NCBI GenBank assembly: GCA_036873135.1
Contig: JAPTYO010000017.1
Span: forward strand, 15,810,001 to 15,874,000
Direction: 5' to 3'
Source of the DNA: Clarkia xantiana subsp. parviflora
Lineage: Eukaryota > Streptophyta > Magnoliopsida > Myrtales > Onagraceae
Length of the DNA: 64,000 bases
Position 1 is the stretch's first letter. The number at the start of each line of letters is the position of its first letter. The translations under genes were made by a program, and so were the position numbers. The notes below the pieces were generated by a model. The model worked only from the letters and a program-made list of their open reading frames with translations. It was not told the DNA's origin and searched no databases. Positions 29,563-64,000 of this stretch are shown here, piece by piece.

Positions 29563-29579
29563 TTGGCGCCGTCTGTGGG
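29563..29579 (+). promoter_or_regulatory. Primer-binding site of element D
   Basis: TTGGCGCCGTCTGTGGG, one base after the LTR; identical to that of the coding element C. Confidence 0.87.
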
Positions 29580-33596: not shown

Positions 33597-33630
33597 AGCC
33601 CTCCGGGAGCCTATCCCGCGAACAGATTTC

Positions 33631-34340: not shown

Positions 34341-34344
34341 CTAA

Positions 34345-40901: not shown

Positions 40902-42451
40902 TGTCGGACCTAAAATATGACCTAAGGCGATTACGTTTTGAAAAACGTGCAACTTAGAAAGAGTCGCCACTAGTTAATTATTAGGCTAATTAGAATCCTA
41001 AATTTCCTAGGGAATAACGAATTAAACACCTAGGTATCAAATCGGTCTACGATCAGAAATTCGAATTCGGGGGTTCTATTACGAATTTAAAAAAAATATT
41101 TTTAACTACGCCCTATCAGTACTTAATTCACTAAATTGCCACTACTAATTAATTATCAACTACAAACTCATTCTATATAAAAACAAAACAAAAACCTAAA
41201 AGCTCTAAAAAGTACAAATATCAATAAAAAAACCTAATATATTCAATACATAATTTATGCAAATAATTTTGTACTTAGTTAATTAAACTAAACTAATTAA
41301 ATTCAAACTAATTGATTAAGCCTAATATAATAAAAATAATAATAATACAAAAACAAAAAAAAAAACAAAAAACGTACTTTACCTGCAACAAAGGACATCA
41401 ACAGAGAAGTCCAGCGGTGGAATGTGTTTGACAGCAAGTAGCGGACCAAATTTCAGTCGGAATCAGAGCTGGACGGTGAGGAGTCGACGGGCGGTGCAGA
41501 CGATCGACCAGGGCCGGGGCGGAGCACCGGACGAGCGGACGACCGGAGCTCCTGGGGACGACGGCTTCGCATGAAGGACAAGAACAGCAGCAGGCAAATC
41601 TAGTATCAATTCCGGCGACGAACATTGCGGCGTGGTTGTAGCGGGCGAGCTGGAAGCAGCGGAAACGACGGTGGTTACGAATCGACTCTGGCAGGGATGG
41701 GCAGTCCGGAGAGCGGGCATCTTTCAGGGCAGGAGCAGGGCGAAATCCGGCGGAGGTCGACGCACGGGCAGGGACGGGCAGCGGAGTGTAGCGGCGGAGG
41801 GACGGCGAAGCTTCGGGCGGTAGCCCCGGCGAGGAAGGCGGTCTGGTGACGATGCAATTGCAGGTCACTGGTCTGACCGGAGCGGAGTCGACTGGGACTG
41901 GTCGACGGAGGTCACAGGTTGGCTGCTGGATATTGATGGTTTGCCGGTGGTTGCCGCGGGATGTTGGAAGGCTTGGGCGACAGGGCGGTCCAGCGAGTCG
42001 TGGTAGTCCTTGACGGAAGTTGGAGATGGGCACTCCGGCGAGAGGTCTACGCGCAGGGGCTGAACTCCGAAGAAACAGCGAGGAGAGGGAGAGAGCATGA
42101 GGAGAGAGGAAGAGAAAAAAAAAAGTTTTTTTCAAGCAAATCTAGGTTTTTTATTCATTTTCTGTTGTGTCCCTTTACATATAAATAAAAAATCTATTTA
42201 TACTAATCTAAGGCTAAGCTAACTAGGAAATAAATATTACATATTTATTCTAACCATAAATGCTAAATATTCAGAAAATATACTCTAAATATTCAACAAA
42301 TATTCTCTGCAATAAATACAAATAACTATCCTAATTTATACCAGTCCTATCTTTAGAAACTTCGCGACCATATTTAAATACTTCCTTTTTTTGACGCGTC
42401 ACATATGACATTTTGAACGTGCTGTGTGCGGACTAAAATTAGGTGTTTACA
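40902..42451 (-). repeat. Element H2 3' LTR
   Basis: Diverged, inverted copy of the element H LTR. It keeps the GC-rich block (41400-42100, reversed) and the CGCCATAGG-like end block. A 245-codon minus frame (42135-41398) crosses the GC-rich block but is arginine/proline-rich with no domain, so I treat it as leader sequence rather than a gene. Confidence 0.85.
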
Positions 42452-43945
42452 GCTTGCCCCTCTTTGGGCGAATTCCCGTAGAACAAGTTCGAGGGGATTT
42501 GTCCAAAGACGAGTAAACACTAATTTTTCTTGGGAAGTATATCTTCTTTCGAGTCTTCGAAACTTCAAGGAAACTCCTGGCTTATTTCGGAAAGTCCAAA
42601 AAAAAGTAGAGCCTCTGTCGGCGGTGCCCCTGTTGGCAGTTCCTCTGTTGGCGTGCGGAAAATAGAACCTCCGTTGGCGGTGCCCCTGTTGGCGGTGCCT
42701 CCATTGGTAGCACAGAAAATAGAACCTCCGTCGGCCGTGCCCCTGTTGGCGGTGCATCCATTGGTTGTGCAGAAAATAGAACCTCCGTCGGCGGTGCCCC
42801 TGTAGGCAGTGCCTCCATTGGTAATGCAAAAAATAGAACCTCCGTCGGCGGTGCCCCTGTTGGCGGTGCCTCCATTGGTAGTGCTGAAAATAAAGCCTCG
42901 GTTGGCGGTGCCCCTGTTGGCGGTGCTTCCGTTGGCGGTGCAGAAAGTAAAGCCTCCAGTGGCGTGCGGAAAAGTAAAGCCTCCAGTGGCGTGCAGTAAA
43001 GTAAAATCTTGATCGATGATGCCTCCAGTGGCAAGCGGAAAAGTAAAGCCTCCAGTGGCGTGCAGTAAAGTAAAACCCCAATCGACGTTGCCTCCAGTGG
43101 CGAGCGACAAGGAAAATCCTCCAGTGGCGAGCAATAAAGTAAAACCTTTGGTGATGATTGGTAACAGAAGACCACTACGTCAGATAGTACCAACAACCTC
43201 TGGTGACGCCTCTAGTGGCGAGTGGTAACTGAAAAACCTCTATGTCAGACCGTACCGGAAAACCTCTGGTGATATCTCTGGTGGCGAAAGATCTCTACGT
43301 CAGACCGTACCAGAGACCCTTTGGCGATGCCTCTAGCGGCGTATGTCGGAGAAGAGCCTCTAGTGGCGTCCGTTGGAGAAGTGCCTCTAATGGCGTGACT
43401 TGCGAGGGATGAATACTAATACTTCGTTCGTCGGGGGTGACTCTCAGAAAGCTGGACCACTTCAGATCCCGATTATTGGTTGATTTGTAGGAACAGACTG
43501 TAACAGTCCTACTCATCTTTGAATGGTGACTCGCGAGATCAGACTGTAACCGTCCCGTTTTCCGTGAAATGGACTTGTAGGAACAGACTGTAACTGTCCT
43601 ACTCATCCTTGAATGGTGACTCGCGAGAGCAGATTGTAACCGTCCCGCCTGTCATGAAGTTGACTCGTAGGAACAGACTGTAACTGTCCTACTTATCCTT
43701 GAATGGTGACTCGCGAGAGCAGACTGTAACCGTCCCTCTTGCCGTGATGTTGACTTGGAAAACGATGTACCGTTAGATAATACACAGGCGCACGAATGTT
43801 TGTCCCTAATTTTTGCCTAATTGCGCATGGTGCGACAACATAGCGGAATCTTTCTCTTTTTATTTTTATTTTTATTTATTTTGAGAATCTCTCTCTTTTC
43901 TCTCCTTTTGCCACGACCGATTGAGAGATTTCCGACCGTGCCCCT
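42452..43945 (-). repeat. Element H2 internal tandem repeats
   Basis: Holds five or six 57-bp units (42605-42960) with CCTCCGTCGGCGGTGCCCCT and CCTCCATTGGTAGTGC, then ~29-bp GCCTCCAGTGGCGTGCGG units, then ~65-bp CTACGTCAGACCGTACC units, then ~109-bp GGAACAGACTGTAACTGTCC units (43485-43740). The same blocks, opposite strand, lie in element H at 55600-56600. No pol is seen. Confidence 0.85.
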
Positions 43946-44911
43946 TGTTGGATCACGGTTGGAACTCCGGTACGTTCTTGACGGAAGTCCGAACTCCTTT
44001 GCTCCAAGTAATCCTGCAAGAAGGGGATAGACCGGGCGGTGACCCAGAATCCCTCTTCGATGCTTAAATGAGTATCTCGATGTAGGCTAGCAAGTATCAG
44101 TATGTGAAAGTCAATGTGTTGATCCTGAGGTAACTCCTTCCTTTATATAGGGGAGGAGTTACCCCAGTTACCTGTTGTGATAACTGCTGGGGGCAGTTAG
44201 CCCACGTTCCGTTTATCTCGGCCACTTGCCCACGTTCCGTCTTTTCAGGCCACTTCCCCACTATGTCGATAGTGGGCGTGTTTCTCGGCCTCGTTCTCTG
44301 GTGGCAAGTCCCGACGGATGTTGGGGACTCCAGAGTTATCTCCTTTGGTCACCGCTCGGGACCCCTCGTCATCGGGACAGGGCCAGTCTTCTCAGGGATT
44401 TAATATCGGGGCCTACTCAAAGGCATATCATCGGGGCCTACTCAAAGGCATATCATCGGAGCCTACACAAAGGCATATCATCGGGGCCTACTCAAAGGCA
44501 TATCATCGGGAGCGTTCAGCTCGTATGTCGAGACCGACCCTGTCGGGTCCTCTCGTATTGGTCTTCTAAGCCTCTTTTGGGGCCCAGTGGACCTACTTCG
44601 CCGTTTAGTCGTCGTTAATGGGCCTAACGGCTATATCGAAACCCATCATTTGCCCCCAAGACACGAGGGACTTATAGTTCGTCGTGTCTTCCAACTTCGG
44701 ACCTCTCGATATTCCGAGGATAACCACCGAATCCGAAAAGATTTCTCGATTACTCAACTATTAAATGCGATGGGTGATGAAGCGACGGCTTGGGTGCCCG
44801 TGCCTGCTTTTCTGAAAAAGTACTTTTTAGCTATTTTGTCGCTAGCGTCTCAACGAAGCGTTTCATCTTCAACAGTCCGGATTGCAACGTCTCTTTGGCT
44901 ACCATCTCTCC

Positions 44912-44918
44912 TATAAAA
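44912..44918 (+). promoter_or_regulatory. TATA box for the element I antisense gene
   Basis: TATAAAA in CTCCTATAAAACCCC, 155 bp upstream of the ATG at 45067. Equivalent to the sites in B and C. Confidence 0.6.
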
Positions 44919-45066
44919 CCCCAAATCTTGGCACTATTCAGTTCTCCTCTACCGTTTCATCCTCTTGTGATTTCAAAAGCTCAAGCTCTCCTTTCTAATT
45001 TTCGACCAGCACTCCGGCAGTTAGGATCTCCGGCCATCAAGATCATCTTCTCTTCTCCGCTTCAAC

Positions 45067-45074
45067 ATGTCTGG
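45067..45074 (+). pseudogene. Start of the element I antisense ORF, cut by element F
   Basis: ATGTCTGG, identical to the first coding exon plus the first donor base of the B and C antisense genes. Element F follows at 45075; TCTGG (45070-45074) should be its target duplication. Confidence 0.6.
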
Positions 45075-45739
45075 TGATGGGTTTCGGTATAGCCGTTAGG
45101 CCCATTAACGGCGACTAAACGGCGAAGTAGGCCCACTGGGCCCCAAAAGAGGCTTAGAAGACCAATACGAGGGGACCCGACAAGGTCGGTCCCGATATAT
45201 GAGCTGAAAGCTCCCGATCATATGCCTTTAAGTAGGCCTCGATGATATGCCTTTAAGTAGGCCCCGATGATATGCCTTTAAGTAGGCCTCGATATTGAAT
45301 CCCTGAGAATGCTGGCCTTGTCCCGATGACGAGGGGCCCCGAGCGGTGACCAAAGGAGATAACTCTAGGGTCCTCGACATCCGTCGGGACTTGCCACCAG
45401 AGGAGGAGGCCGAGAAACACGCCCACTATCAGTGTAGTGGGAAAGTGGCCTGAAAAGACGGAACGTGGGCTACTGGCCGAGATAAACGGAACGTGGCAGT
45501 TATCTCAACAGGTAACTGAGGTAACCCCTCCCCTATATAAAGGAAGGAGTTACCTTATTATTGATACATTCACACACTTACATACTGATCCTTGCTTGCC
45601 TGCATCGAGATACTCATTTAAGCATCGGAGAGGGATTCTGGGTCACCGCCCGGTCTATCCCCTTCTTGCAGGATTAGTTGGAGCGAAGGAGTTCGGACTT
45701 CCGTCAAGAACGTACCGGAGTTCCAACTGTGATCCAACA
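45075..45739 (+). repeat. Element F 5' LTR
   Basis: TGATGGGTTTCGG start, GATCCAACA end. It has three copies of a ~29-bp unit with ATATGCCTTTAAGTAGGCC (45219-45295), a TATA box TATATAAA at about 45534, and the GCATCGGAGAGGG / CCCCTTCTTGCAGG block. The element I LTR (43946-44648, opposite strand) carries the same repeat. Confidence 0.9.
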
Positions 45740-45757
45740 TTGGCGCCTTCTGTGGGA
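45740..45757 (+). promoter_or_regulatory. Primer-binding site of element F
   Basis: TTGGCGCCTTCTGTGGGA directly after the 5' LTR; one base differs from the C and D site. Confidence 0.8.
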
Positions 45758-45794
45758 AACGAAACGAAAAGAAAAAATAGATTCTACCCAATCG

Positions 45795-47607
45795 ATGGCT
45801 GGCAAGCAAAAGAAGAGACAAGGACAATCTGGCGGTTCCCGCACCCTGCTGGAACTCTGAATTCAGGGCCGCCGGAGCGCACTGTTGATCGGAATGATCC
45901 TCCCCCTGCAGTTTCCCAAACAGGGGGGCATCATGATGATCGCGAAGATTCGATTCGAAACTCGTCGGAGAGCCGGGAGAGGTCCCGAGGAGGGACCAGG
46001 ATGCTCCTACAAAGGTGGACCTGGCGAAGGCTATGCTGGATGCCATGCCGATATTCCTGGAGAGTATGGAGTCTCTCCTGGACCGAAGAGAGGCTGCTAA
46101 GAAGAAGGAGGAGGAGTTGCCTCCGCCCCCACCGAGAGAGAATCGGGACGGGCAGGAGGCCCAACCCAAGCACCGGGACAAGGGCAAGGAGCCTGCCCTA
46201 TCGGAGCAGTTCGTGGTCGATGGGCCTGGACCGGTGCAGCATAGAACCATCCCTCTCAATGGCCCTATCACCCCCGACCAAGTGGTGAAGATCGTGAACA
46301 TCTGTATGGGGGACCAGAAGAAGATGATGTCGGAGCTGAGGGATCGATCCACTCATCCCTTTGTTCCCCGATTTGTGAACACTACTGCCCCGCCAGGACT
46401 GTGTATCCCGACAATCAAGGAGTATGATGGCGAGGGAGATCCAGTTCGTCATGTCCAGAAGCATGTCATGGCTTGTTTAGGCAGAGCCCCGAATGACGAT
46501 ATAGTGTGCGTTCTGTTCCCAGGCACACTTGGTGAGAGGGCCCTGACGTGGTTCTTCAGCCTTCCCCCAGGGTGCATCTCTAGCTGGACCCAGATGCATG
46601 ATCGCTTCATCCAGCAGTACCAGGGCCTTCGACGTCTCCTGAAAAGCACGAGGTCCCTGGCTGAAGTGGTACAGAGGCCCGACGAGTCGCTGGCGCATTA
46701 CTATCAAAGGTACACTGCCAGCGTGGCCGAGATTGATGAGGAGATGTCGGAGGGAGAGACCATCCGCACCTTCATTCGGAACCTGACAGCACCATATGGT
46801 TCCGACCTGATGCACAGCGTGGCTAAGAAGCCTTTGTGGAACATGGAGGCGCTGCAGAAGAGGGTGAAGCAGCAAATCGACGTCCATGAGTCGAAGATAG
46901 CTGTCGGAGACCTCGATCCTCCAAAATCAAACAAGGGGAAGCAGTCGTTCAAACCCTCGGACGATCGCAGGAGGAAAGATAAACCCGAGAGTAGTCGGGG
47001 TCGAGGCCGTCCCGATCGGAGGGAAGACAAGCGTCCCTCGAAGTCGGACAAGCGCGAGGACCGTTACACTCCTCTCATTTGCTCTATGGGCGCCGTGTTG
47101 GCGGTGATGGACCGACAGGGTATCACCAGCTACCCCCCGAAGAAGGAAGAGAGAGTTCATGGGAGCCCACACCGATCGTTATTTTCGTTTCCATCGCGCC
47201 AGCGATCACGACACTAACCATTGTCGGGAGCTGAAGAAGGAGATTGAGAAGCTGATCCAGAAGGGGAAGCTCAAGGAATTTGTGGCTGGACAACAGGGCC
47301 GATCCCGTTCCCGGTCCCGATCGCGGTCTCGCTCCTGATCCCACGATCGGTCCCCGAAGAAGGATAAGCCCGAGTCTTCCAATGCCCGCAGGGAGAAGCG
47401 GGGAACCATTAATGTGATTCATGGAGGACTTGCTGCAGGAGGAGATACCACGGCATCTCGGGAGGTCTATGCTTCTCGGATTCCCATTGCTGTGGTGCTG
47501 GGCAAGAGGGCCCGAACTTGGACTCCGAAAGAAGAAATGGTGATTCCCTTCTCAGCAGAGGACCTGATAGGTGTGGAGGCCCCGCACGATGATGCTTTGG
47601 TCCTGAC
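45795..47607 (+). pseudogene. Element F gag and start of protease, broken
   Basis: ATG at 45795 (MAGKQKKRQGQSGG) with a frameshift and stop by 45860. The capsid region is open from about 46015 to 47150 in another frame: NGPITPDQVVKIVNIC, EGDPVRHVQKHV, LGERALTWFFSLP. A further frameshift near 47150 precedes the knuckle-like HRASDHDTNHC. An RS-rich stretch (47300-47350) contains a TGA near 47337. The protease begins (AVVLGKRARTWTPKEEMV) and is cut by element E at 47608, before its active site. Confidence 0.88.
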
Positions 47608-48330
47608 TGTTAGGTTCTAAGCCTTCGGTCAACGGGTTGTCGGTTTAAGGCTTATTCCTCACTGGTGAACTGACGGATTCAGAACTCTCGGGGCTAGTCG
47701 CTCTGATGCTTGTCCTTCTGTCCTCCTCCTTCTCTTCTCCACGTTACCCTGCAACAGGGGTAATATCAAGCACGGAGGGGAGGGTGGTGCTTGATGAACC
47801 CTCTCCGATGCTTAAGACAGAACGTCGTTTTTAGAGAGATAAAGCTAGAGAGAAGTCAGAGCTAAATTGCACACTTAGCCAAGATTCCCAAATGAATGGT
47901 GGAAGGGTTGTATTTATAGGCAACGGTGTCATTAAGGTGGCTTAATGACATCGTTAACCTTTAAACACAATTAATTAGTCCTTGATCACATAATTAAAAC
48001 CTTAAAGCATGGAGAGGTTGGCGGAAATAATCTAAGTGCGGGAGTCGGGAAACGGTGCCAGGGCCCTTGGGGGCGGGGAGAAAATCTGACCCCCAAGGGT
48101 AGGGGTTGGGTGTGGCCACCCAACCCCTCCCTAGGGGAGATCGGGTTGGCTGACCCGACCTCGCCTAGGTGAGTTCGTCGCGCGGCCCAGACGAGCATTT
48201 TCGCCTCGCCCGGACCGTTGGCTTTTCGGCGGGGTGTTTGGGTCGAAGTTTCGATTTATAATTATTGACGGGGTGATCAAAATAAAACGATTCGGAAGTC
48301 AACGGGTTCAAATTGGGCGTATATCCATCA
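47608..48330 (-). repeat. Element E 3' LTR
   Basis: Matches 60411-61165. It has about one palindromic unit (CCTAGGGGAGATCGGGTT, at 48130-48175), against two in the 5' LTR and seven to nine in element D. Confidence 0.9.
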
Positions 48331-48678
48331 TATGCCCCCGAGTCAACCAATGGCCTGACCCTTGATTGACTCTATTTTAGGATGGTATGACACGCGCAAT
48401 TTGAAGCCGGAATCTTACCTTTTGTCGGAATCCTTACTTACCCATGGGTGTGTGTCTTTGACTCTGCCCCCTGTCTTATAAGATAGAGGAATTGCAAACG
48501 TCAGAATAGCACGGACACGTGTCCAAGCACGTGTCCGTCTGAGATGGAAATAATAAATCCAATACCGTCACGAGCTTACACTCGGAAAATATACGCATAT
48601 GTGGGGATGCAACATGAATATGGTTAAGCGAGTTTATAGTTCAATTTCATGACGGGGTAAGCCTATGTGGGGAAAAAT

Positions 48679-48917
48679 TATTAACGTTTATAATTGTAGA
48701 TGGGTTGGAGAGTATGAAAAGAGCAATCCTTTCATTATACTAAACATGATATGAGAAAGTTGCTTAACCATTACAATAGTGGAGGCTCATTTATATAGGA
48801 GACCTCTTGGGCTAATATGAAAAACCTAGTAAACATTAGGGACTAGAATGTAAATACTAGAACTAAGACAACTTAGCATAATTAGATATTAGTCCCCATA
48901 CATATAATATCCCAATA
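48679..48917 (-). repeat. Element G 3' LTR
   Basis: Direct repeat partner of 58743-58959. It retains about 22 bp (GGGCTAATATGAAAAACCTA, about 48810-48832) missing from the other LTR. Confidence 0.9.
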
Positions 48918-49741
48918 TTCCCCCATCTTTTCCTTCTTCTTCCTTCTTCAATCCAAAACGCATCACCAATCTTCAACAATTGAATCCCAAAAATCAATCT
49001 TCAAAACGGAGCTTCCAAACTCCAATCATCAACAAACAAAAAATGAAGCCACATGCTCCAATCTTCAAACTTCAAGGCCACTGTGCTCTCAGAGGTGAAC
49101 ACCCACTTGTAGCAATAACACATGCTCTCAGAGGTGGTGAAAATTCACGTGTACCAACAATCGGGGTCTTCATCAAGCTCTCAGAGGTGAACACCCACTT
49201 GTAGCAATAACACATGCTCTCAGAGGTGGTGAAAATTCACGTGTAGTGATGACAGTTGCCACCTATGGTCCTTGAACTCCAATCCTCAACAATATGAGGT
49301 CCATCAAAATCCAACAAACAAAAGACGAAGCTCCAATGCTTCAATCTTCAACAACCCAAACAAAAGAGCAACACAATGCTCCAACATCTTTCCAATCAAA
49401 AGAACAACATAATGCTCCACCACAATAAACCAAGGTACATTTAAACCCGGTCTTCACAAAAACGGCCCCCGAAAATCCAATTTCGGAGATCCCCAAACTT
49501 CAAAACTGTCATCAAAACAGCAAATCTTCAACAAATTCAACTGTAATCCAGTTGAAATCCAACAATCAAGCTATCGATAGCTCGAATCCATCATAATATC
49601 ATCAAAACCACAGCATATCCATCACGGCACATGAAATTTCAGCAATTTCAGCTAAAAACATCAAATTTCTGCACATTTCTGCATTTTCCAGCAATTTCCA
49701 GCCGATTTCCAGCAATTTCAGCAGAATTTCAGCATTTACAG
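48918..49741 (-). repeat. Element G interior, left part with CTCTCAGAGGTG repeats
   Basis: A ~100-bp segment, AGCTCTCAGAGGTGAACACC and CTCTCAGAGGTGGTGAAAAT, is repeated at 49088-49150 and 49179-49245. The rest is A/C-rich with AATTTCAGCA repeats near 49640-49735. No gene. Confidence 0.75.
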
Positions 49742-51172
49742 TGTAAACACCTAATTTTGGTACGCGCGACACGTATATAACACGTTCAAAAATGTTATGT
49801 GTAATGCGTTTAAAAAGGGAAGTATTTAAATATGGAAGGTCACGGGGTTGCCAAAAATAGGCTCAGCTTAAATTAGGACAATACATATGCAATAAATGAT
49901 GTAATCATCAGAAAATATATAGTATATATTTATGGAAAAAATCATAAATATATATATATATAATTTTCGGATTTATTGAGTGTATATTAGAGAAATATGT
50001 GTTTTCCTAATTTTTGGTGTCAATTTACCTATAAATAGGTACCTATTACATGTAAAAAGGAGGAGACCACAATTAATAATAATTCATCAGTTTTTGAGAA
50101 CCGCACTGTTTTGTCTCGTAGTGAAAAAGTTTTTTTTTTTTTGGTTTTCTCCTTCCTGCTGCTGAAGACCTCCTTCCCTCCGGTCACCTCCGGCCAGCCA
50201 TAGCCACCGGCGCCGCTCCCAGCCGCGTCCGACCACCTCAGAGTTCCTGGAAGACCTTCCGCCGCCCAGAGCCACCGGACCGCGCCGCGCCGCCCTCTGC
50301 CGTCCCGGTCAGATCAGCCGCGTCCGTCCAGCCCACCGAGTCGCTGCTGCGAGGACAACTCCGGCCACCGTGGTGCGCTCCAGCCATTACCGTCGCCAGA
50401 TCCAGTTTCCCGTCGGAGGTCCACCACGCCGCCCGGAATCTTCGAGACCAGCACCACCGGGATCGGGTCGCTCCACCGCGTCGTTGCCCTCCCAGTCCGT
50501 CCGTCCCTCTGCCGGTGTTGCTGTCCTGCCGGTGCTGCCATCCTCCTGTTGCAGGTAATCCCGCTGTTCAATTTTTTTTTTTTTTTGTTAATATTATTTT
50601 CTGTTAATTTTCGGTTTTTTTTTATTTATTATTTTTTATTATCATTATTATTATTGTTATTAGGACATGTTAATTATTTAATTTAGATGTAGATTAATTA
50701 GGTAACGTGTTTTATTGTATGTATATATGTGTAGGACGTATTATTATATTATGATTTTGAGCATGATTGATTTTATTATATTTTATCTCAATTAGGAGTT
50801 TTAGATGTGTAATAGTTTTTTTTAGAATTTATATTTTTCGTTAATAGTTTTTTTTTTGCATGAAGGTTAGTTTAGTTTTTTGATATCGTTAGATTAATTA
50901 GTCATAACGCATAATTAAATTTTAAAATTGGCAAATAGGTTAATTAAGTACCGAAAGGGCGCAATTAGAAAATAATTTTTCTTAATTCGTAATAGAACCC
51001 CCGAACTTGGATTTCTGATCGTGGACCGATTTTAGACCTAGCGTTTAATTCGTTATTCGTTTAGGTAATTTAGGATTCTAGATAGCCTAATAATTAACTA
51101 GTGGCGACTCTTTTCAAAATTGCACGTTTTCAAAACGTAATTCGCCATAGGTCGGATTTTTAGGGTCCGACA
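49742..51172 (+). repeat. Element H 5' LTR
   Basis: TATA box TATAAATA at 50030-50037. About 90 bp further begins a very GC-rich stretch (50150-50555) ending at CAG|GTAATC, a good splice donor. The 3' LTR is 30 bp longer through a longer (AT)n run and an extra 21-bp CTGCTGAAGACCTCCTTCC unit. Confidence 0.92.
50030..50037 (+). promoter_or_regulatory. TATA box of the element H LTR
   Basis: TATAAATA in ACCTATAAATAGGTACC; same site at 57027-57034 in the 3' LTR. Confidence 0.7.
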
Positions 51173-52202
51173 ATTTGGCGATTCTGCTGGGGACGACTTA
51201 GAGGGTTCGGGCTTTGTATATTTTCTTATTTTCCTTTTTTTAGTTTATTTGTGTGTAACTCTGGTATTCTAACTTTGGGTTTTTATGTGATAGGTGCGGA
51301 ACTTTTTATTTTACTAACTTATGTTCCTTGTTGAACCCACACACACACCACTTTAGAATAATCACCAAAACGCCTAAAACCAAGGGCGACTATGAACCCC
51401 GGAGGTTTAGTACGGTACGACCGGAGCGGCTGGGCCGCCGGTACGGCTCGGGAAAACTCTACTCGCTTGTGAAGGTCCTATGATCCCTATGATGGGGTGA
51501 GTAAACCACCTTGTCGGGAACCTATCAGTGGAGCCTACCTTATAGAACAAAGCAAAAACACACACCTGAAGCTTCGATCCTGCCGCTATGCTTACTTGCG
51601 TGTGTTCTTATTCTAATTGTTCTCGACCCCTAGAAATTTTCATGTATAGGACATGGGTCTCGATGTAAACTTTATTTTTTATACCGTATGTGATTGTACA
51701 ACGCGCATTAATTGAGATTTACGTTACAAGCATGCATCATATTTTCAAAAAATGTGTCATTCGAATCGTCGTTTCTGAAACGCTTTACACGCCATTTTCG
51801 GTAAGAATGGCACAACTACTTAACTTCACTCATATCACGGCCCTACAATTTTTCAAGACTGGCGTTGACCAGGTTCGGACCAGCATGACGGATGCAGTGC
51901 GAAGCTATTGAAGAAATACTGTGTAAATAGAAACGTCAGGGTTAAGTGCGTGTTCCAAAATCCGAACAAGTGGTAAAACTCAGATCCATTTTGAAAAACC
52001 TTGTCGCATTACCATCGCTCGGATTATGGGGCAAGTACTCGATGCTCATTGACCGAGTTCTGAGTTGTGTAAAGTGTCTTAGAAACATATTTTACAAAGC
52101 ATTTAAAAAAAAAAATGAGGAGTTGAACGACACATTACTTTCAAAATGATCATGCATGACATCTTGTGTTCCATATTCTGAATATCACATTTTTCGCTGC
52201 AG
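50555..52202 (+). other. Putative leader intron of element H
   Basis: Donor CAG|GTAATC at the end of the GC-rich LTR exon, acceptor TTTTTCGCTGCAG at 52190-52202, 33 bp before the gag ATG at 52236. Splicing would remove U5, the PBS and the A/T-rich leader. This rests on splice-site appearance only. Confidence 0.4.
51174..51193 (+). promoter_or_regulatory. Primer-binding site of element H
   Basis: TTTGGCGATTCTGCTGGGGA just after the LTR, different from the PBS of C and D. The tRNA was not identified. Confidence 0.75.
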
Positions 52203-52235
52203 GTATTACTGGCCATCACGCGACAAACCACTAGC

Positions 52236-53677: not shown

Positions 53678-54600
53678 TTTCTATCGAAAAACCTCCTAGT
53701 GTTGCATCCGTTTTTTTTTAGCGTTGAATAAACTTTTCAGTTATGTTCTCCTTGCGCGGCAAGATCATGAGCTCCGCATAGGAAAGAGGGATATTGTCAT
53801 GATCTAATCAATATAAATAAATCCCTCTATTTGAGTTTATTTAATTGGCTTTCCTTTTTTAGGAATGATGCAAGTCGATTGACAATTCAGCCTTTTCTTG
53901 AGTCGACGTTCCTAACAAAGTACTCAAAAAAGTCATGGATTACCAAGCCCATCAAGGCGGCCGATGAAGGATTCAAATCACCCAGTGGTCATAGTCTCCA
54001 TACAGGGAATGCATGCGCCTTCCCGAACCAAGCCGTACATTCATTTTACGGCGACATCTAAACTGGTCAGTGGCAACCAAATGGCATATCCCCGTTCAGA
54101 TCGAGCACAACCGCCATATGAAGAAAAAGACGGAAGATGCAACAGATCCATTCATATATGGAGTAAATTTCCATTAAAGATGTCGGGCACCCAGGTAAGG
54201 GAATTCGTGATCAATTATACCCCCGAAATTTGATTTTTTTTCCTTACCCATTTTTCAGCTCGAATAAACATCCAATTCAAGGCCCCTGAAAGAGCACATC
54301 TCGTGCACGGCCCTTTGCTCGCCAACCATTTTTGCGCCCCAATACGGACTACTCCACGTCACCCATGTGTGTTCGTTGACCAGGCCATTCACCCTGTATG
54401 CGACGAGCCTAACCCGGTAGGTGCTAGCCATTGGGCATCCCCAGACGAGATTGAGCAATAACCGGGGCACTTGAGAAACCGAGATTAGAAATCACTGTCT
54501 ACGTCATCCATTGGTTGTAAGGTCCATTTCAGATTTGCCGCTAGGGGCATGTACATAATTATTGTTGATTATTTTCGTTAAATTTTCGTTTTCAAAAAAA
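53678..54600 (+). other. Element H interior after gag, no pol seen
   Basis: Short frames only (76 and 89 codons at 53831-54061 and 53964-54233) without a recognised domain. Protease, RT and integrase motifs are absent, so this is a deletion or a natural gag-only design. Confidence 0.6.
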
Positions 54601-55340
54601 AAAAATCATTTTCTTTAGGGTCACAGCCGCCCTTTAATTGGCTACCGATAAAAATAAAGAGAGTGCTCATGCATATTTTGTGAGAGCAGTGAAGAAATAG
54701 AAGGGTCACAATTGTCCCTAAATCAACTACAAATAAAAAGGGCCTCAGTCGTCCCTAAAGCGACTACAAAAAAAGGGCCACAGCCACCCTTCAAATGACA
54801 ACAGATAAAGAGCGCTCCTGCAACATCAAAAGCGGGAAATAGGTGAAAGGGCCACAGCCACCCTCCAAACGGCTACGAATAAAAGAGTTACCCCGCGAAC
54901 CCTGTGAGGGCGGTAGAATAAAAAGAGCCACAGCCACCCTTTAAAATGGCTACACAAAAAGAGTGATCTCGCGAAACCGGTGAGGGCGGGAACATAAAAG
55001 AAAGGGTCACAGTCGTCCCTCATACGACTACAGTCAAAAAAGCAATCTCGGAACATCGATGGCGGGTATTAAGTGAAAGGGTCACAACCACCCTCGAAAT
55101 GGGTACGTACAAAAAGTGTCTCCCGGATCAGAGACGAGGAATGAAGGGCCACAACCACCCTCCAAATGGCTACAATCAAAAGAGCTCCTGCAACAATGAA
55201 GACGGTGAAGAAAAGGTCACAGTCACCCTTCAAAGGGCTACAAATACTCCCGCATCGAGGCGGAAAACAAAGATAGGGCCATAGCCACCCTTTAAACGGC
55301 TACCGAATAAAGAGCGCTTCCGCTAGGTTTAAAACCCGAA
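54600..55340 (+). repeat. Element H degenerate 60-70-bp repeats
   Basis: About ten imperfect units with GGGCCACAGCCACCCT, TTTAAATGGCTAC and AAAGAG. GCCAC and GTGGC / GGCTAC motifs lie in inverted pairs within units. Confidence 0.8.
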
Positions 55341-55589
55341 AGGGCGGCCTAGGCAAAATCAGGAAATGAGAGGCATGGTTGCAAGTTCAGAAATTGCAAT
55401 CATGGCAAAAGGAGAGAAAATAACAAAAACCGAGGGGCACGGTCGAGAATCTCTCAATCGGCCGTGGCAAAAGGAGAGAAAAAAGAAAAAAAAAAGAAAA
55501 ATGAAAAAAGAAAAGAAAAAGGGAAAAAAAAAAAAGATCCCGCTAGGTTGTCGCACAATGCACAATTTAGGCAAAAAATAGGGACGAAC

Positions 55590-56600
55590 ACTCATGCGCA
55601 AGCGTATTTTTTACGACACAGCGTCTTCCAAACGGCAAGCGGGACGGTTACAGTCTGCTCTCGCAAGTCACCATTCAAGGATGAGTAGGACTGTTACAGT
55701 CTATTCCTAAAAGTCACAACCGACAATCGGGATCTGAAGTTTTCCAGCTTCCTGAGAGTCAACCCCGACGAACGAAGCATTAGTATTCAGCCTTCGCATG
55801 TCACGCCACTAGAGGCATTTCTCCAACGGACGCCACTAGAGGCTTTTCTCCGACATACGCCGCTAGAGGCATCGCCAAAGGGTCTCCGGTGCGGTCTGAC
55901 GTAGAGTTCTTCCGCCACCAGAGATATCACCCGAGGTTTTCCGGTACGGTCTGACGTAGAGGTCTTCCGTTACCACTCGCCACTAGAGGCATCACCAAAG
56001 GTTCTCCGGTACGGTCTGACGTAGAGGTCTTTCGCCACCAGAGATATCACCAGAGGTTTTCCGGTACGGTCTGACGTAGAGGTCTTCCGTTACCACTCGC
56101 CACTAGAGGCATCACCAAAGGTTCTCCGGAACGGTCTGACGTAGAGGTCTTTCGCCACCAGAGATATCACCAGAGGTTTTCCGGTACAGTTTGACGTAGA
56201 GGTTTTTCCGTTACCACTCGCCACTAGAGGCGCCACCAGAGGTTGTTGGTACTGTCTGACGTAGAGGTCTTCTATTACCAATCATCGCCAAAGGTTTTAC
56301 TTTCCGCACGCCACTGGAGGCTTTACTTTTTCGCACGCCACTGGAGGCTTTACTTTTCTGCACGCCACTGGAGGCTTTACTTTTTCGCACGCCACTGGAG
56401 GCTTTACTTTCTGCACTACCAATGGTGGCACCACCAACAGGGGCACCGCCAACAGAGGTTCTATTTTCCGCACGCCAACGGAGGCACCGCCAACAGGGGC
56501 ACCGCTGACCGAGGTTTTGCTTCTGCACGCTAATGGAGACACCGCCAACAGGGGCACCGCCGACAGAGGCTCTGTTTTTTTTCGCACCATCAATAAAAAG
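55590..56600 (+). repeat. Element H complex repeats before the 3' LTR
   Basis: A single GACTGTTACAGTCTATTCC block, then ~130-bp composite units with ACGGTCTGACGTAGAGGTCT and CGCCACTAGAGGCATCACCA (55850-56260), then ~29-bp units CGCCACTGGAGGCTTTACTT (56300-56410), then GGCACCGCCAACAGGGGCAC units to 56570. Inverted counterpart of 42452-43945 in H2. Confidence 0.88.
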
Positions 56601-56722
56601 GCCACCTTGGAAACTTGAAGACCCGGAGAAGATATACTTCCTAGCCAAAATTAGTGTTTACTCGTCTTTGGACAAACCCCCTCGAATGCATTCTACGGGA
56701 GTCCGTCCAAAGAGGGGCAAAC

Positions 56723-56924
56723 TGTAAACACCTAATTTTGGTACGCGCGACACGTATATAACACGTTCAAAAATGTTATGTGTAACGCGTTTAAAAAAGG
56801 AAGTATTTAAATATGGAAGGTCACGGGGTTGCCAAAAATAGGCTCAGCTTAAATTAGGACAATACATATGCAATAAATGATGTAATAATCAGAAAATATA
56901 TAGTATATATTTATGGCAAAAATC

Positions 56925-56965
<41 letters not shown>

Positions 56966-58183
56966 GGATTTATTGAGTGTATATTAGAGAAATATGTGTT
57001 TTCCTAATTTTTGGTGTCAATTTACCTATAAATAGGTACCTATTACATGTAAAAAGGAGGAGACCACAATTAATAATAATTCATCAGTTTTTGAGAACCG
57101 CACTGTTTTGTCTCGTAGTGAAAAAGTTTTTTTTTTTTTCTCTCCTTCCTGCTGCTGAAGACCTCCTTCCTGCTGCTGAAGACCTCCTTCCCTCCGGTCA
57201 CCTCCGGCCAGCCACAGCCACCGGCGCCGCTCCCAGCCGCGTCCGACCACCTCAGGGTTCCAGGAAGACCTTCCGCCGCCCAGAGCCACCGGACCGCGCC
57301 GCGCCGCCCTCTGCCGTCCCGGTCAGATCAGCCGCGTCCGTCCAGCCCACCGCGTTGCTGCTGCGAGGACAACTCCGGCCACCGTGGTGCGCTCCAGCCA
57401 TTACCGTCGCCAGATCCAGTTTCCTGTCGGAGGTCCACCACGCCGCCCGGAATCTTCGAGACCAGCACCACCGGGATCGGGTCGCTCCACCGCGTCGTCG
57501 CCCTCCCAATCCGTCTGTCCCTCTGTCGGTGCTGCTGTCCTGCCGGTGCTGCCATCCTCCTGGTGCAGGTAATCCCGCTGTTCAATTTTTTTTTTTTTTG
57601 TTAATATTATTTTCTGTTAATTTTTAGTTTTTTTTTATTTATTATTTTTTATTATCATTATTATTATTGTTATTAGGACATGTTAATTAGTTAATTTAGA
57701 TGTAGATTAATTAGGTAACGTGTTTTATTGTATGTATATATGTGTAGGACGTATTATTATATTATGATTTTGAGCATGTTTGATTTTATTAGATTTTATC
57801 TCAATTAGGAGTTTTAGATGTGTAATAGTTTTTTTAGAATTTATATTTGTCGTTAATAGTTTTTTTTCGCATGAAGGTTAGTTTAGTTTTTTTATATCGT
57901 TAGATTAATTAGTCATAACGCATATTTAAATTTTAAAATTGGCAAATAGGCTAATTAAGTACCGAAAGGGCGCAATTAGAAAATAATTTTTCTTAATTCG
58001 TAATAGAACCCCCGAACTTGGATTTCTGATCGTGGACCGATTTTAGACCTAGCGTTTAATTCGTTATTCGTTTAGGTAATTTAGGATTCTAGTTAGCCTA
58101 ATAATTAACTAGTGACGACTCTTTTCAAAATTGCACGTTTTCAAAACGTAATTCGCCATAGGTCGGATTTTTAGGGTCCGACA
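56723..58183 (+). repeat. Element H 3' LTR
   Basis: Direct repeat of 49742-51172, with a longer (AT)n run at 56929-56958. Followed by target duplication TACAG. A 216-codon frame (56977-57627) crosses the GC-rich leader; it is Pro/Arg-rich and is stopped early in the 5' LTR. Confidence 0.93.
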
Positions 58184-58742
58184 TACAGCAGCAAATCCAG
58201 CAAAAACAGCATCTAAACCGCAGCAAAAAAACGATTCCAGCCATAATACTCAACCCGGGACAGCAGATTTCAGCAATGATGAACAGATGCAAACAACAAC
58301 AGCAAAATCCAATGAAACAGTAGCAGAATTGCATCAATTCAGCTGAATTTTAACAGTAAGATTCAAACAACCAAATCACCTCGGAATTTGACGTATAATG
58401 TATCAATGAAATCGGGAGCTCGAGACGATTCCGAAAAACTAAAAATCGCGGCGATTGGACATCGGGAAGGTGGCGCGTGGCCTGCACGCGCCGGCGGGGC
58501 GCAACTCACGCGGCGGCGCGTGAGGGCGCGTGCGGTGGTTTCTGACGGCGCCGGAAACTGCAGAATGTTCGCCGGAGGTTGCTGGGTCGATTGGTTATGT
58601 CAATTTTGAAAGAAGAGGTGTAAATCAAATGGGTATTTTTCGGGGCTAGGGACTTAACTCACGGCAAGGAAAAATTTCAGGAAATAATTGAAAAAACGAA
58701 ATTGAAATCAAAACACCAAGATCGAAAATAGCTCTGATACCA
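58184..58742 (-). other. Element G interior, right part
   Basis: Continuation of element G after the H insertion; CAGCAAAT/AACAGCA-rich text, no gene. Ends with the PBS (complement GCTCTGATACCA) at 58731-58742. Confidence 0.7.
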
Positions 58743-58959
58743 TATTAACGTTTATAATTGTAGATGGGTTGGAGAGTATGAAGAGAGCAATCCTTTCATT
58801 ATACTAAACATGATATGAGAAAGTTGCTTAACCGTTACAATAGTGGAGGCTCCTTTATATAGGAGACCTCTTAAACATTAGGGACTAGAATGTAAATACT
58901 AGAACTAAGACAACTTAGCATAATTAGATATTAGTCCCTATACATATAATATCCCAATA
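58743..58959 (-). repeat. Element G 5' LTR
   Basis: 217-bp partner of 48679-48917. It abuts the PBS and carries the AAAAT duplication at its right edge. Confidence 0.9.
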
Positions 58960-58964
58960 AAAAT

Positions 58965-60390
58965 TCTGAATTTGGTCCAATTTTTTTCTAAGTATGGGAT
59001 ACTAGAAAATATGCCTATAGGATGTTACCTTGAGTGAACATGGATGTATCATGAACATGAAAGTGTGTACCTATATAAGGGAAAGTGTGTCGCGGACACG
59101 AGGGTCCTGGACTTGCGAGGTGCCATGCATCCGCCGCGTCGTTGATGAACATCTTACAACAAAAGTATGTTCTCAGTGTATATGCCGAGGGACATGACCC
59201 TTGTTGATATAGTATTGCCCCCAAGATCATTGAGGTGAATGCCCCCAGAGGGGGAGTATATGTAGTGACGTGGCCAAGTAGGGGCACTTGCCCCTTAGTC
59301 GCGAGGTGTTAGGCCTCCTGATATGTTTTCGATGAACATCTCATGATAAACATGTGTTGGGTAGCGCAAACGCGTGTAGTGCCATATAGGCTGTATAAAG
59401 TGTTGGGACGAGGCCTGTACTGACATAGAGTTGCCCCCGTATAGAGGATGTTCGCTATGTAGTAGTTGTGAACTTGTAAGTTCGTAGGTGTGGAGTTGCC
59501 CCCTTGTCGGGATGTTCGCACCGTAGTCGTTTCGAACACGAGGTGGCGACTATTGTATCGACTGCTACTTGGGTTTTCCAAAGTAGGGTGCATTCCACAG
59601 CTGCTACTTGGTTTTTCCCAAGGTAGGGTGCTCTCCGCGACAGATACTTGAAGTTTCCGAGGTAGGGAGAAGGCCAGAGGTCGGACGAGGTGACATACCC
59701 TTCCATGGCGTCGGTCAGAGGTCGGCGAGGCGACGTGCCTATCCCTGTTGTTGCCACAACCTGGCGTTTTCAAGGTAGTGCGCCTCCTGCACCGCTACTT
59801 GGTTTTCCCCAAGGTAGAGTGTGTCTTGCGACCCGTATTTGGTTTTTCCCAAGGTAGACTGTCTTCTTGGTACGTCTCCTGAACCTGTATATATTCCATT
59901 ACCTGTGAACACAATAATCGTTGGACAATATGTGGACATGATAGCCGCCTAGAGAGGGGTGGACATGACAGCCACTCCAAGATGTGCGGACACGATAGCC
60001 GTTTATCACTGCGTGGACATGATAGCCACTCCGAGAGGCGCGGACATGATAGCCGCCTAGAGTCACGTGTACATGATAGCCACTCCGAGGTGTGCGGACA
60101 TGATAGTTTCCCCTAGATACACGGACATGATAGCCGCTCCGAGTTGTGCGGACATGATAGCCGCTCCGAGATGCGCGGACATGATAGCCGCTCCGAGATG
60201 TGCGGACATGATAGTCTGCTTCTATTACACTTAGTTTCTGGACGAGAGGTGTTACTCTTCCTCTTAGACTGTCGACATATGTGTGTTTGGTAGGAGGTGT
60301 AGGAGGTGTACGCGCTTGGCGTGACTCTCCCGAATCTTGTAAAGTGGTGATCTTAGAATAACAGTGGTACGCCATGACTTGTTGTAGCAT
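58965..60390 (-). repeat. Element E interior with 27-bp tandem array
   Basis: 59940-60215 holds about ten 27-bp units (GATAGCCGCTCCGAGATGTG + CGGACAT), the reverse-strand homologue of the element D array (35225-35475). Units are open on the minus strand as a nine-residue GYHVRASRS repeat within a 178-codon frame (60435-59899) that begins in the LTR. Further ~46-bp degenerate repeats with CTACTTGGTTTTTCCCAAGG lie at 59560-59860. No pol. Confidence 0.85.
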
Positions 60391-60410
60391 TTCCCACAGA
60401 CGGCGCCAAG
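60391..60410 (-). promoter_or_regulatory. Primer-binding site of element E
   Basis: On the minus strand CTTGGCGCCGTCTGTGGGAA, directly beside the LTR; the same core as C and D. Confidence 0.85.
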
Positions 60411-61165
60411 TGTTAGGTTCTAAGCCTTCGGTCAACGGGTTGTCGGTTTAAGGCTTATTCCTCACTGGTGAACTGACGGATTCAGAACTCTCGGGGCTAG
60501 TCGCTCTGATGCTTGTCCTTCTGTCCTCCTCCTTCTCTTCTCCACGTTACCCTGCAACAGGGGCAAAATCAAGCACGGAGGGGAGGGTGGTGCTTTATGA
60601 ACCCTCTCCGATGCTTAAGTCAGTACGTCATTTTTAGAGAGATAAAGCTAGAGAGAAGTCAGAGCTAAATTGCACACTTAGCCAAGATTCCCAAATGAAT
60701 GGTGGAAGGGTTGTGTTTATAGGCAACGGTGTCATTAAGGTGGCTTAATGACATCGTTAACCTTTTAACACAATTAATTAGTCCTTGATCACATAATTAA
60801 AACCTTAAAGCATGGAGAGGTTGGCGGAAATAATCTAAGTGCGGGAGTCGGGAAACGGTGCCAGGGCCCTTGGGGGCGGGGAGAAAATCTGACCCCCAAG
60901 GGTAGGGTTTGGGTGTGGCCACCCAACCCTCCCTAGGGGAGATGGGTTGGCCAACCCTATCTCCCCTAGGGGAGATCGGGTTGGCTGACCCGACCTCGCC
61001 TAGGTAAGTTCGTCGCGCGGCCCGGACGAGCATTTTCGCCTCGCCCGGACCGTTGGCGTTTCGGCGGGGTGTTTGGGTTGAAGTTTCGATTTATAATTAT
61101 TAACGGGGTGATCAAAATAAAACGATTCGGAAGTCAACGGGTTCAAATTGGGCGTATATCCATCA
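60411..61165 (-). repeat. Element E 5' LTR
   Basis: Partner of 47608-48330, longer by about one palindromic unit (60920-61000). Ends GTATATCCATCA, then the F sequence resumes with GTGACCCTGAATGTG. Confidence 0.9.
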
Positions 61166-62137
61166 GTGACCCTGAATGTGGATGGGTACGAGATGAAGCG
61201 AATCTTGATAGATGGAGGGAGCTCCTCCGAAATTTTGTTCATGGATGCACTGAGGGCCATGGGAAAAACCAAGAAGGACTTGAAGCCTGCGGACTTCCCG
61301 ATGGTCGGATTTTATGGGTCTACCTCTTACCCTGTGGGGATGATTACTTTACCGGTTGAATTCGGTAGCGGTTGGAAGTCAGAAAAGAGGAACGTCGAAT
61401 TCGTGGTGGTCGAGTCCGCGGGGACCTACAATGCAATTATCGGGAGGACCACCATCAACCCGCTGGGGACAATTTCCTCAACTGTTCATCAGAAGATGAA
61501 GTTTCCGACCGACCACGGAGTCGGGGAGGTCCAAGGTGATCAGGTGGCCTCCAGAAGGTGCTACGTCAATGCCACTCGAAGGAGGAATCGGGAGGCTATG
61601 ACTGTTCTCCAGACTGACGCTGATCCCCGAGAGGAGTTTGGGCTTCCCGCCCAGATGGAAGATTTGAAGGAGGTCGAGATTGATGGACCTCAGAGGAAGG
61701 TGAAAATCGGGTCCACTCTAACTGAGGAGACGACCCGAGAATTGATCGATCTTTTGAAGGAATTCAAGGAGCTATTTTCCTGGTCCCCGAGTGACATGCC
61801 AGGAATCAGCCCCGATGTGATTACTCACGAGCTGAAGATTGATCCCGCGATCAAGCCGATTACACAGAGAAGGCGCCCGATGGGTGCCGACAAGAAGATC
61901 GCGATCCAGTAAGAGGTGGGCAGGTTGGTCGATGCTGGATTCATTAAGGAACTCCGATTCCAAACCTGGGTCGCCAACCTAGTCCTGGTGAAGAAGTGCA
62001 ATGTCAAATGGCGGATGTGTGTTGATTTCCGCGACCTGAACAAGGCATGCCCGAAGGATTGCTACCCGCTCCCGAGGATCGACCAGCTGGTGGATGCCAC
62101 ATCGGGACATGAGCTGCTGAGCTTTATGGATGCCTAA
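61166..62137 (+). pseudogene. Element F protease active site, linker and RT start, two stops
   Basis: Resumes the frame cut at 47608: LNVDGYEMKRILIDGGSSSE, with the retropepsin-like active site IDGGSSS intact near 61208. The linker (KEVEIDGPQRKVKIGS, WSPSDMPGISPDVI) follows; a TAA at 61910-61912 falls in the RT N-terminus and a second at 62135-62137 right after FMDA, in the YSGYNQIKM motif of RT. Confidence 0.9.
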
Positions 62138-64000
62138 TCTGGCTACAATCAGATCAAGATGTCCAAGGAGGATGCCCCCCACACCGCCTTTTATACTGAT
62201 AGTGACATCTATCATTATGATGTTATGCCCTTTGGATTGATCAGTGCAGACGCAACTTATCAGAGGATGGTGTACAAGCTGTTCGGAGATATGCTGGGGA
62301 AAACAATGGAGGCCTATGTGGATGATATGCTAGTGAAGTCCCGACAGGCCGAGGATCATGTTCACAACTTGGCCACGGCGTTCGAGCGGATGAGGCTTCA
62401 TCAAGTTCGCTTAAACCCGACCAAGTGTTTCTTCGGAGTGCACTCAGGGAAGTTTCTGGACTTCATGGTGAGCCAGAGGGGAATCGAGGTGAACCCTGAG
62501 AAGTTAAAGGCAATCGAGGAGATGAAGTCCCCGATGAACCATCGGGAGGTGCATGTGCTGAATGGCCGATTGGCCGCGATGAATCGCTTCCTGTCCAAGG
62601 CAAGTGATCGATCCATGCCGTTCTTTGATGTGCTGAGGGCCAACACGAAGTTTGAGTGGACTGCCAAGTGCGAAGAGGCGTTCCAGGTACTTAAGCAGCA
62701 CATTCGCACCCTCCCGCCATTGGCGAAGCCCATCCCAGGCGAGCCACTCTATCTGTATTTGGTTGTTTCTGAATTTGCTGTTAGCTCTGTCTTAGTGAAA
62801 GTTGTAGAGGGTAGCCAAATCCCTGTCTATTATGTAAGCAAGGAACTCGCCAAGTCTGAAATGAATTATCCCGTTGAGAAGTATCTTTATACGTTGATTG
62901 TTACTGCTCGGAAGCTGAGACCTTACTTCCATGTGCATGAGATTTTCGTTTTGACGAATCAGCCCTTGAAACATTTTTTGAACCGACCTGATGCATCGGG
63001 GAGATTAGTGAAATGGGCAGTCGAGCTTAGTGAGTTCCGCATTCACTTTGCTCCGAGAACGACTATTAAGGGCCAGGCGTTGGCGGATTTCATAGCAGAG
63101 TCTAGAGCCCCCGATCTAGAAGAAGCGGACCCTGTAGAGGGGGCAACTATGGAAGTCCCGATAACAGAGCAGTCAGAACAGCCCGACGCCAATAATACTT
63201 GGGAGATGTATACCGATGGCTCCTCATATTCAGAAGGATCGGGAGCTGGTTTCGTACTGATACCAACAGACGGAGGCGAGCCCCTCCGATATGCCTTGGC
63301 CTTGACATTTAGGGCCACCAACAATGAAGCTGAATATGAGGCTCTCATCACTGACCTCAAGATTGCTAAAGGAACGGGAGTTGGTCACTTAAAGGTGAAG
63401 TGTGATGCTAGCCTGATCGTGAACCAAGTCCAGGGGCGATACGAAGCAAAGAGCCCGATGATGAAAAAGTATCTTCGCGAGGTGCAAACCCTGAAGGAGA
63501 GTTTCAAGAGCTTCGATATTGAGGCGATCCCGAGGGAGGATAATGTGGAAGCAGATGCCTTGAGCAAGTTCGCCTTTGGGGCACCCCTCGATGAAAGTCG
63601 GAAGGTGCATTTCTTGGAGAAGGTGATCCTGTCAACCACTGATCAATCGGAGGTATGTGCCATTGAGATCGGATCGGAGGAGCCCACTTGGATGACCCCG
63701 ATAGCCGCGTATCTGAATACGGGGGCAGTCCCCGATGATGAAGTAGCAGCCGGCAAAATACGCCGAATCGCGCCCAATTATGTGATGGTGGACAATCAAC
63801 TGTACAAAAAGGGGTATTTAACTCCCTACTTGAAATGTGTGGCTGAGCCCGACACAGATCGGATCCTTAGGGTGGTGCACGAAGGACACTTGGCTTGTCA
63901 TGAGGGTGCCCGATCCATCGTGAGGAAAGTGCTGAACCTGGGCAATAACTGGCCCTCGATGAATAAGGAGGCAACGATGCTAGTCCGATCCTGTGACGCT
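62138..64000 (+). pseudogene. Element F RT, both RNase H domains and integrase start, open to window end
   Basis: Same frame as 61166-62137 and, as far as I can read, without a stop to 64000. RT: MPFGLISADATYQRM (B and C have NAGATY), YVDDMLVKS at about 62318. Gypsy RNase H: YYVSKELAKSEMNYP. Archaeal-type RNase H: YTDGSS (about 63210), NNEAEYEAL, KCDASL, EADALS, so all four acidic residues are present. The integrase zinc finger begins (CHEGARS, SCDA) and runs off the window. Confidence 0.9.

What the first reader, a model, noticed from the sequence alone, without database searches (positions are those of the whole stretch)
40902..64000. Six-level nested insertion of LTR elements
H2 contains I, which contains F, which contains E, which contains G, which contains H. 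The inner boundaries are fixed by target duplications (H: TACAG exact, G: AAAAT exact, E: CTGAC/GTGAC), and each host text resumes on the far side of the insert (E in F protease, G in E, H in G). The nest gives a strict order of insertion from H2 (oldest) to H (youngest), which can calibrate LTR-divergence dating.
Basis: partly seen in the sequence, partly recalled or inferred. Interest (0 to 1): 0.75.

Follow-up and report, generated by a model that had tools for sequence, protein, structure and literature searches.

The report
Six-deep nest of plant jumping genes
Six retrotransposons sit inside one another like Russian dolls, an ordinary kind of structure, with a bonus just outside the window: part of one of them has been copied five times in a row.

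Summary
The six-level nest is real. I's right LTR and its CCCCT were not found: I's body runs antisense to 132513 and then joins another element, so its 5' end was probably lost. Flanks joined across E, F, G, L and M align over the junction onto uninterrupted relatives. The whole nest is 108 kb and holds at least 12 LTR elements; of the six further ones (L, K, N, M, J, K2), four have exact TSDs. LTR divergences do not contradict the nesting (P=0.67) but resolve only two age classes, {H2,F} about 0.055-0.061 and {E,G,H} about 0.02, so the calibration value is small. Up to 8 layers are reported for wheat 3B, so this is a known kind. The unexpected feature is mostly outside the window: F carries five tandem copies of a 4.64-kb pol segment, bounded by a 7-bp microhomology, with a junction seen only here among the candidates scored and a mosaic that indicates unequal exchange; again a known kind.

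The parts
40902..64000 (-). H2, level 1 (outermost) antisense LTR element; left (3') LTR 40902-42451, internal 42452-43945; continues beyond the window to 149072
   Evidence: LTR pair 40902-42451/147521-149072, K2P 0.0545, TSD GATTA on both sides; PPT-like and PBS-like sites read antisense
43946..64000 (-). I, level 2 antisense element; left (3') LTR 43946-44648, PPT at 44649; body continues right of F in pieces to 132513; 5' LTR not found
   Evidence: CCCCT on the left only; collinear pieces 88132-89594, 98971-100904, 117504-118147, 127831-132513
45075..64000 (+). F, level 3 sense element; 5' LTR 45075-45739; gag ORF 45940-47214; runs to 88126
   Evidence: LTR pair 45075-45739/87462-88126, K2P 0.0613, TSD TCTGG on both sides; Retrotrans_gag 7e-13
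47608..61165 (-). E, level 4 antisense element, 3.27 kb net of insert; LTRs 47608-48330 and 60411-61165; no Pfam domain in the two ORFs scanned on its strand
   Evidence: K2P 0.0225; TSD CTGAC/GTGAC; PBS CTTGGCGCC read antisense and flanks aligning across on relatives; Pfam
48679..58959 (-). G, level 5 small non-autonomous element, 1.83 kb net of insert; LTRs 48679-48917 and 58743-58959 with TA..TA ends
   Evidence: K2P 0.0187; TSD AAAAT on both sides; antisense PBS TGGTATCAGAGC and PPT
49742..58183 (+). H, level 6 (innermost) sense element; LTRs 49742-51172 and 56723-58183; same family as H2; gag-like ORF at 52859-53293
   Evidence: K2P 0.0235; TSD TACAG on both sides; Retrotrans_gag 1.4e-12
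61710..64000 (+). First part of copy 1 of a five-copy tandem array of a 4.64-kb F pol segment; the array runs to 84875
   Evidence: 96.6-98.9% matches at a period of about 4641 bases

Best explanation
A six-level nest of LTR retrotransposons built by successive integrase-type insertions, each leaving a 5-bp target duplication, in the order H2, I, F, E, G, H. Most of it is Tat-like Ty3/gypsy material; G is a small non-autonomous element with a tRNA-Met-type primer site. The same host I later took L, K (which took N) and M, and H2 also took J (which took K2). The DNA was then reworked: a deletion or other illegitimate joining at 132513/132514 removed I's 5' end, and a 7-bp microhomology inside F seeded a tandem duplication that unequal exchange enlarged to five copies. 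Shown: edges, TSDs, containment, relative order, array mosaicism. Inferred: the deletion of I's end, the lineage names, the step from three to five copies, and any absolute time.
For: Edges and TSDs. Joined 150+150 bp flanks align onto uninterrupted relatives for E (293-300 of 300 bases on three relatives, 78-95%), F (300, 87%), L (300, 90%) and M (298, 82%), and across the junction for G (first 216 bases, 75%, onto L; bases 112-256, 82%, onto 28363-38702), K (bases 31-300, 71% with 45 gap columns, onto J) and N (bases 134-300, 99%, onto K's left LTR, whose start lies 17 bases before N's edge). LTR order test: LR 0.55, P=0.67; homogeneity of the five pairs rejected, p 1.1e-6. Array: five copies, GGTCCGC at the unit start and after the unit end, with one changed base in copy 1 that polarises as derived; a whole-junction match at only 4 places, all in this array, among the 40 candidates scored; derived bases shared by copies 2,3,4 lie in the first 2.7 kb (8 of 8) and those shared by copies 1,2,3 in the rest (8 of 8).
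Against: I's 5' LTR and right CCCCT not found. E's TSD has one mismatch. No uninterrupted relative was available for G around H, and H2 around I is shown on the left side only; on the right H2 matches H only in patches. Only 40 of 6426 first-look candidates were scored for the array junction. Two sites with derived bases in copies 3,4 conflict with the four of copies 2,3 in the same part of the unit, and single sites fit neither group. Relative L020 carries two unit ends with the following sequence, 3.6 kb apart on one strand, which I did not resolve.
Confidence: 0.93

Rival explanations
1. Apparent nest produced by misassembly: repeated LTRs joined wrongly, and the tandem copies duplicated by the assembler.
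For: All parts are repeats; the reads are not available here.
Against: TSDs pair up at the edges of nine elements of the nest, eight of them exactly; joined flanks run across on relatives; array copies differ pairwise by 22-84 substitutions with a structured mosaic, unlike assembler duplicates.
Confidence: 0.04
2. The nest arose partly by recombination between related elements rather than by insertion only.
For: I has lost its right end, and an open frame runs across 132513/132514, where an antisense gag-protease of a different family meets I's gag. F and I are related and oppositely oriented.
Against: TSDs on both sides of H2, F, E, G and H fit simple insertions; recombination is needed only at I's right end and in the array.
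Confidence: 0.1
3. The five-copy array came in with F (F inserted already carrying it) rather than forming in place.
For: Tat-lineage elements are reported to carry tandem repeats in their 3' UTR, thought to arise during replication (PMC7004042, passages). Relative L020 shows two unit ends 3.6 kb apart.
Against: The unit is mainly pol; copies differ by K2P 0.005-0.019 while F's LTRs differ by 0.061; the junction was not seen elsewhere among 40 scored candidates; two of five fetched relatives (L022, L023) show the flank before the unit, the unit once (L023 with an internal gap) and the sequence after it. Homogenisation of an older array is not excluded.
Confidence: 0.12

Closest known systems
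Nested LTR retrotransposon clusters of cereals (wheat chromosome 3B, PMC4290129, passages read)
   Same: Elements within elements; 30,199 nested insertions reconstructed, up to 8 layers, 320 clusters over 100 kb, up to 301 kb
   Different: Here the genome is about 696 Mb; depth 6 and 108 kb lie within the reported range
Nested versus host LTR ages in 15 plants (PMC7251063, passages including the abstract read)
   Same: Nesting used as an order of age against LTR divergence
   Different: About one fourth of nested elements there are more diverged than their hosts; here the two nominal reversals are within error
CRM1TR and CRM4TR, tandem repeats from maize centromeric retrotransposons (PMC3648361, passages read)
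   Same: Arrays initiated by illegitimate recombination at short homology, then grown
   Different: Units there join UTR and LTR, with CRM1TR monomers averaging 696 and 819 nt at its two loci; here a 4.64-kb segment without LTR, five copies, inside an element that keeps both LTRs
Ogre-derived satellites of Lathyrus sativus (PMC7004042, passages read)
   Same: Tandem arrays growing from within Tat-lineage elements
   Different: There from short tandem repeats of the 3' UTR
Tandem LTR-retrotransposons (PMC11899658, abstract read)
   Same: Retrotransposon sequence repeated in tandem at one locus
   Different: Those share internal LTRs and are thought to result from a single insertion; this unit contains no LTR

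Membership tests
Nested LTR retrotransposons | Paired direct LTRs at the edges of each element | tested here: met
   H2, F, E, G, H pairs; for I only one LTR found
Nested LTR retrotransposons | 5-bp target-site duplication on both sides | tested here: met
   Exact for H2, F, G, H; one mismatch for E; I one-sided
Nested LTR retrotransposons | Host sequence resumes across the insert | tested here: met
   E, F, G of the chain and L, M, K, N against relatives; H in G and I in H2 not shown this way
Nested LTR retrotransposons | Inner elements not more diverged in their LTRs than their hosts | tested here: met
   Order not rejected, P=0.67, low power; E less diverged than F, p 5e-4
Ty3/gypsy, Tat-like lineage (F, I, J) | Protease-RT-RNaseH-integrase order with a second RNase H-like domain (lineage criterion recalled) | tested here: met
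   RVT_1, RT_RNaseH, RVT_3, Integrase_H2C2 and rve in the array copy-2 ORF; RVT_1, RNase H types and RVT_3 in I and J pieces. No lineage tree made
TRIM-like non-autonomous element (G) | Short LTRs, tRNA-Met PBS, PPT, no coding capacity | tested here: met
   LTRs 239/217 bp, PBS TGGTATCAGAGC, PPT; no ORF of 90 aa or more on its own strand; the two opposite-strand ORFs scanned have no Pfam hit. Net length 1.83 kb is long for a TRIM (recalled)
Satellite DNA (F array) | Long arrays of many copies | tested here: not met
   Five copies at this locus; a tandem array, not a satellite

The most novel reading that the evidence does not exclude
The array in F is a satellite repeat caught at birth: a 4.64-kb pol segment duplicated in place at a 7-bp microhomology after F inserted, then grown from three to five copies by unequal exchange with a crossover near unit position 2.7 kb, all inside a nest whose insertions date it to about the time of E, G and H.
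Probability: 0.6. Interest if true: 0.42.

Novelty: new member of a known kind. Interest (0 to 1): 0.3.

Why it matters
It is a well-bounded example of nesting in which two far ends predicted from sequence alone were verified in flanking DNA, and a relatively dated setting for a young retrotransposon-derived tandem array whose seeding microhomology and growth steps can still be read. It does not change what is known about nesting or LTR dating.

Tried and rejected
Rejected: an inverted-LTR element at 43946-45740; it is I's antisense 3' LTR next to F's sense 5' LTR. Rejected: the F-type LTR ending at 145036 as I's far LTR; it has the opposite orientation and is followed by CCTGG, so it belongs to J. 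Considered: H2 sitting in another H-type LTR, because of a TAAACACC-like stretch at its left; no self match of 100 bases or more covers that flank, left open. Two genome-wide questions did not complete because the search machine was busy: whether the 132513/132514 junction occurs elsewhere, and whether an uninterrupted G copy exists.

One search used edges up to one base off for some LTRs of H2, F, E, G and H; one search repeats those five with exact edges and the values hardly change. The order test uses the counts. The 2.7-kb cut used for the array was chosen after seeing the sites; with it the shared patterns split 9:0 against 0:15 (p 7.6e-7) and the private sites of copies 1 and 5 split 17:1 against 30:16 (p 0.025).

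Full report
Setting. The window is C17:15810001-15874000 of an unnamed 695.6-Mb genome held in 59 contigs. Flanks were fetched to 154000 in window-extended coordinates (64001 = C17:15874001). Positions above 64000 below are in that scale.

Self-comparison, comparison with the flank and edge reading give H2 40902-149072 (antisense, GATTA/GATTA), I from 43946 (antisense, CCCCT on the left), F 45075-88126 (sense, TCTGG/TCTGG), E 47608-61165 (antisense, CTGAC/GTGAC), G 48679-58959 (antisense, AAAAT/AAAAT) and H 49742-58183 (sense, TACAG/TACAG). PBS- and PPT-like sites lie where the orientation predicts. F and H2 end on the right in the predicted order, with the predicted duplications. H and H2 are one family; F and I are related; E (3.27 kb net) is related to L, M, K and K2; G (1.83 kb net) has TA..TA LTR ends and a tRNA-Met-type PBS.

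Empty sites (eight insertions, eleven comparisons). Joined 150+150 bp flanks align onto uninterrupted relatives: E out of F onto the 7003-15687 element (296 of 300 bases, 81%), the 18620-40475 element (300, 78%) and I's own body (293, 95%); F out of I onto F's own 3' region (300, 87%); L out of I likewise (300, 90%); M out of I onto J (298, 82%); G out of E onto L (bases 1-216, 75%) and onto 28363-38702 (bases 112-256, 82%); K out of I onto J (bases 31-300, 71%, 45 gap columns, with weaker secondary matches); N out of K onto K's left LTR (bases 134-300, 99%; the LTR starts there). For H in G no match was expected or found; one search compared G with all loci held and found only itself. E interrupts F just before the protease motif IDGGSS; the frame is continuous in the relative.

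Element I. Right of F, antisense F-type sequence collinear with I's left part appears at 88132-89594, 98971-100904, 117504-118147 and 127831-132513. The gaps are L 89595-98970 (AGTTC exact), K 100905-117503 (GCGAC exact) with N 109361-116508 inside its right LTR (AAGTC exact), and M 118148-127830 (AGCAT exact). At 132513 I's gag joins antisense gag and protease-like sequence of another element (K2), whose 5' LTR (135717-136646) lies in the 5' LTR of J; J ends at 145036 followed by CCTGG, and H-type sequence of H2 resumes in patches up to its right LTR. I's 5' LTR and right CCCCT were not found. One deletion from I's gag into K2 would explain the loss of I's end, of the H2 stretch between I and J, and of J's left end; this is inference. 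The stretch of K2 next to the joint also looks gag-like on reading, so more than one joining is possible. The frame across the joint is open (895 aa within L015, running off its end); being in frame has a one-in-three chance.

Ages. K2P of LTR pairs: H2 0.0545, F 0.0613, E 0.0225, G 0.0187, H 0.0235 (standard errors 0.004-0.010); L 0.0056, K 0.0101, N 0.0101, M 0.0145, J part 0.0291. The order H2>=F>=E>=G>=H is not rejected (LR 0.55, P=0.67), but 12 of 120 orders fit as well or better; the clear signal is the split between {H2,F} and {E,G,H} (homogeneity p 1.1e-6; F versus E p 5e-4). So the nest bounds the ages but hardly calibrates the clock. PMC7251063 (passages, abstract included) reports that about a fourth of nested elements are more diverged than their hosts.

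The array in F. From 61710 to 84875 F holds five copies of a 4.64-kb segment (RT part, RNase H, integrase and beyond). Pairwise K2P is 0.005-0.019 against 0.061 for F's LTRs. The unit start and the sequence after the unit end share GGTCCGC; copy 1 differs at one of these bases, which polarises as derived. A 301-bp junction probe matched over its whole length at 4 of 40 scored places, all four in this array; 2 of the 40 are the array's own ends and the other 34 matched one side only (40 of 6426 first-look candidates were scored, so this is not exhaustive). Of five fetched relatives, L022 and L023 show the flank before the unit, the unit once (L023 with an internal gap) and the sequence after it; L021 starts inside the unit; L019 and L020 cover only its end, and L020 holds two such ends 3.6 kb apart. 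With L021, L022 and L023 as outgroups 125 sites were polarised (one search counted 135 variable sites): derived bases shared by copies 2,3,4 lie in the first 2.7 kb (8 of 8), by copies 1,2,3 in the remainder (8 of 8), by copies 1,2 in the remainder (6 of 6) and by copies 2,3 in the first part (4 of 4). Sites that do not help or conflict: copies 1,2,3,4 (10), 2,3,4,5 (3), 3,4 (2), 1,2,4,5 (1), 4,5 (1). The register shift is what unequal exchange near unit position 2.7 kb predicts; growth from three copies to five is my inference. Each copy keeps a long open frame (819, 818, 818, 733, 806 aa), which youth alone explains.

Known or new. Literature searches. Wheat 3B: up to 8 layers and clusters up to 301 kb (PMC4290129, passages). 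Tandem repeats from LTR retrotransposons by illegitimate recombination: CRM1TR and CRM4TR (PMC3648361, passages); Ogre-derived satellites (PMC7004042, passages). Both parts of this locus are therefore new members of known kinds.

Noticed in passing
61710-84875 (beyond the window from 64001; L009-L011): Five-copy tandem array of a 4.64-kb pol segment inside F, bounded by a 7-bp microhomology and showing unequal exchange.
   Followed up: yes
28363-38702: E-family element with no substitution in 1131 aligned LTR bases but 71 gap columns, TSD GAAAG; it lies inside the F-type element 18620-40475 (TSD CATGG).
   Followed up: partly
132513/132514 (L015:8513/8514): Open antisense frame running from gag and protease-like sequence of one element into the gag of I across a joint.
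   Followed up: partly
E-family LTRs, e.g. 136220-136490 (L016): Tandem, partly self-complementary units in the LTR; LTR pairs of this family differ by gap runs, whose position I did not check.
   Followed up: no
L020:155-1215 and L020:3767-6001: Two array-unit ends with the sequence that follows them, about 3.6 kb apart on one strand at another place in the genome.
   Followed up: no
48679-58959: G's LTRs begin TA and end TA instead of TG..CA, with a tRNA-Met-type PBS directly beside them.
   Followed up: partly
7003-15687: F-type element with TSD TCACC and LTR K2P 0.0145, used here as an uninterrupted relative.
   Followed up: partly
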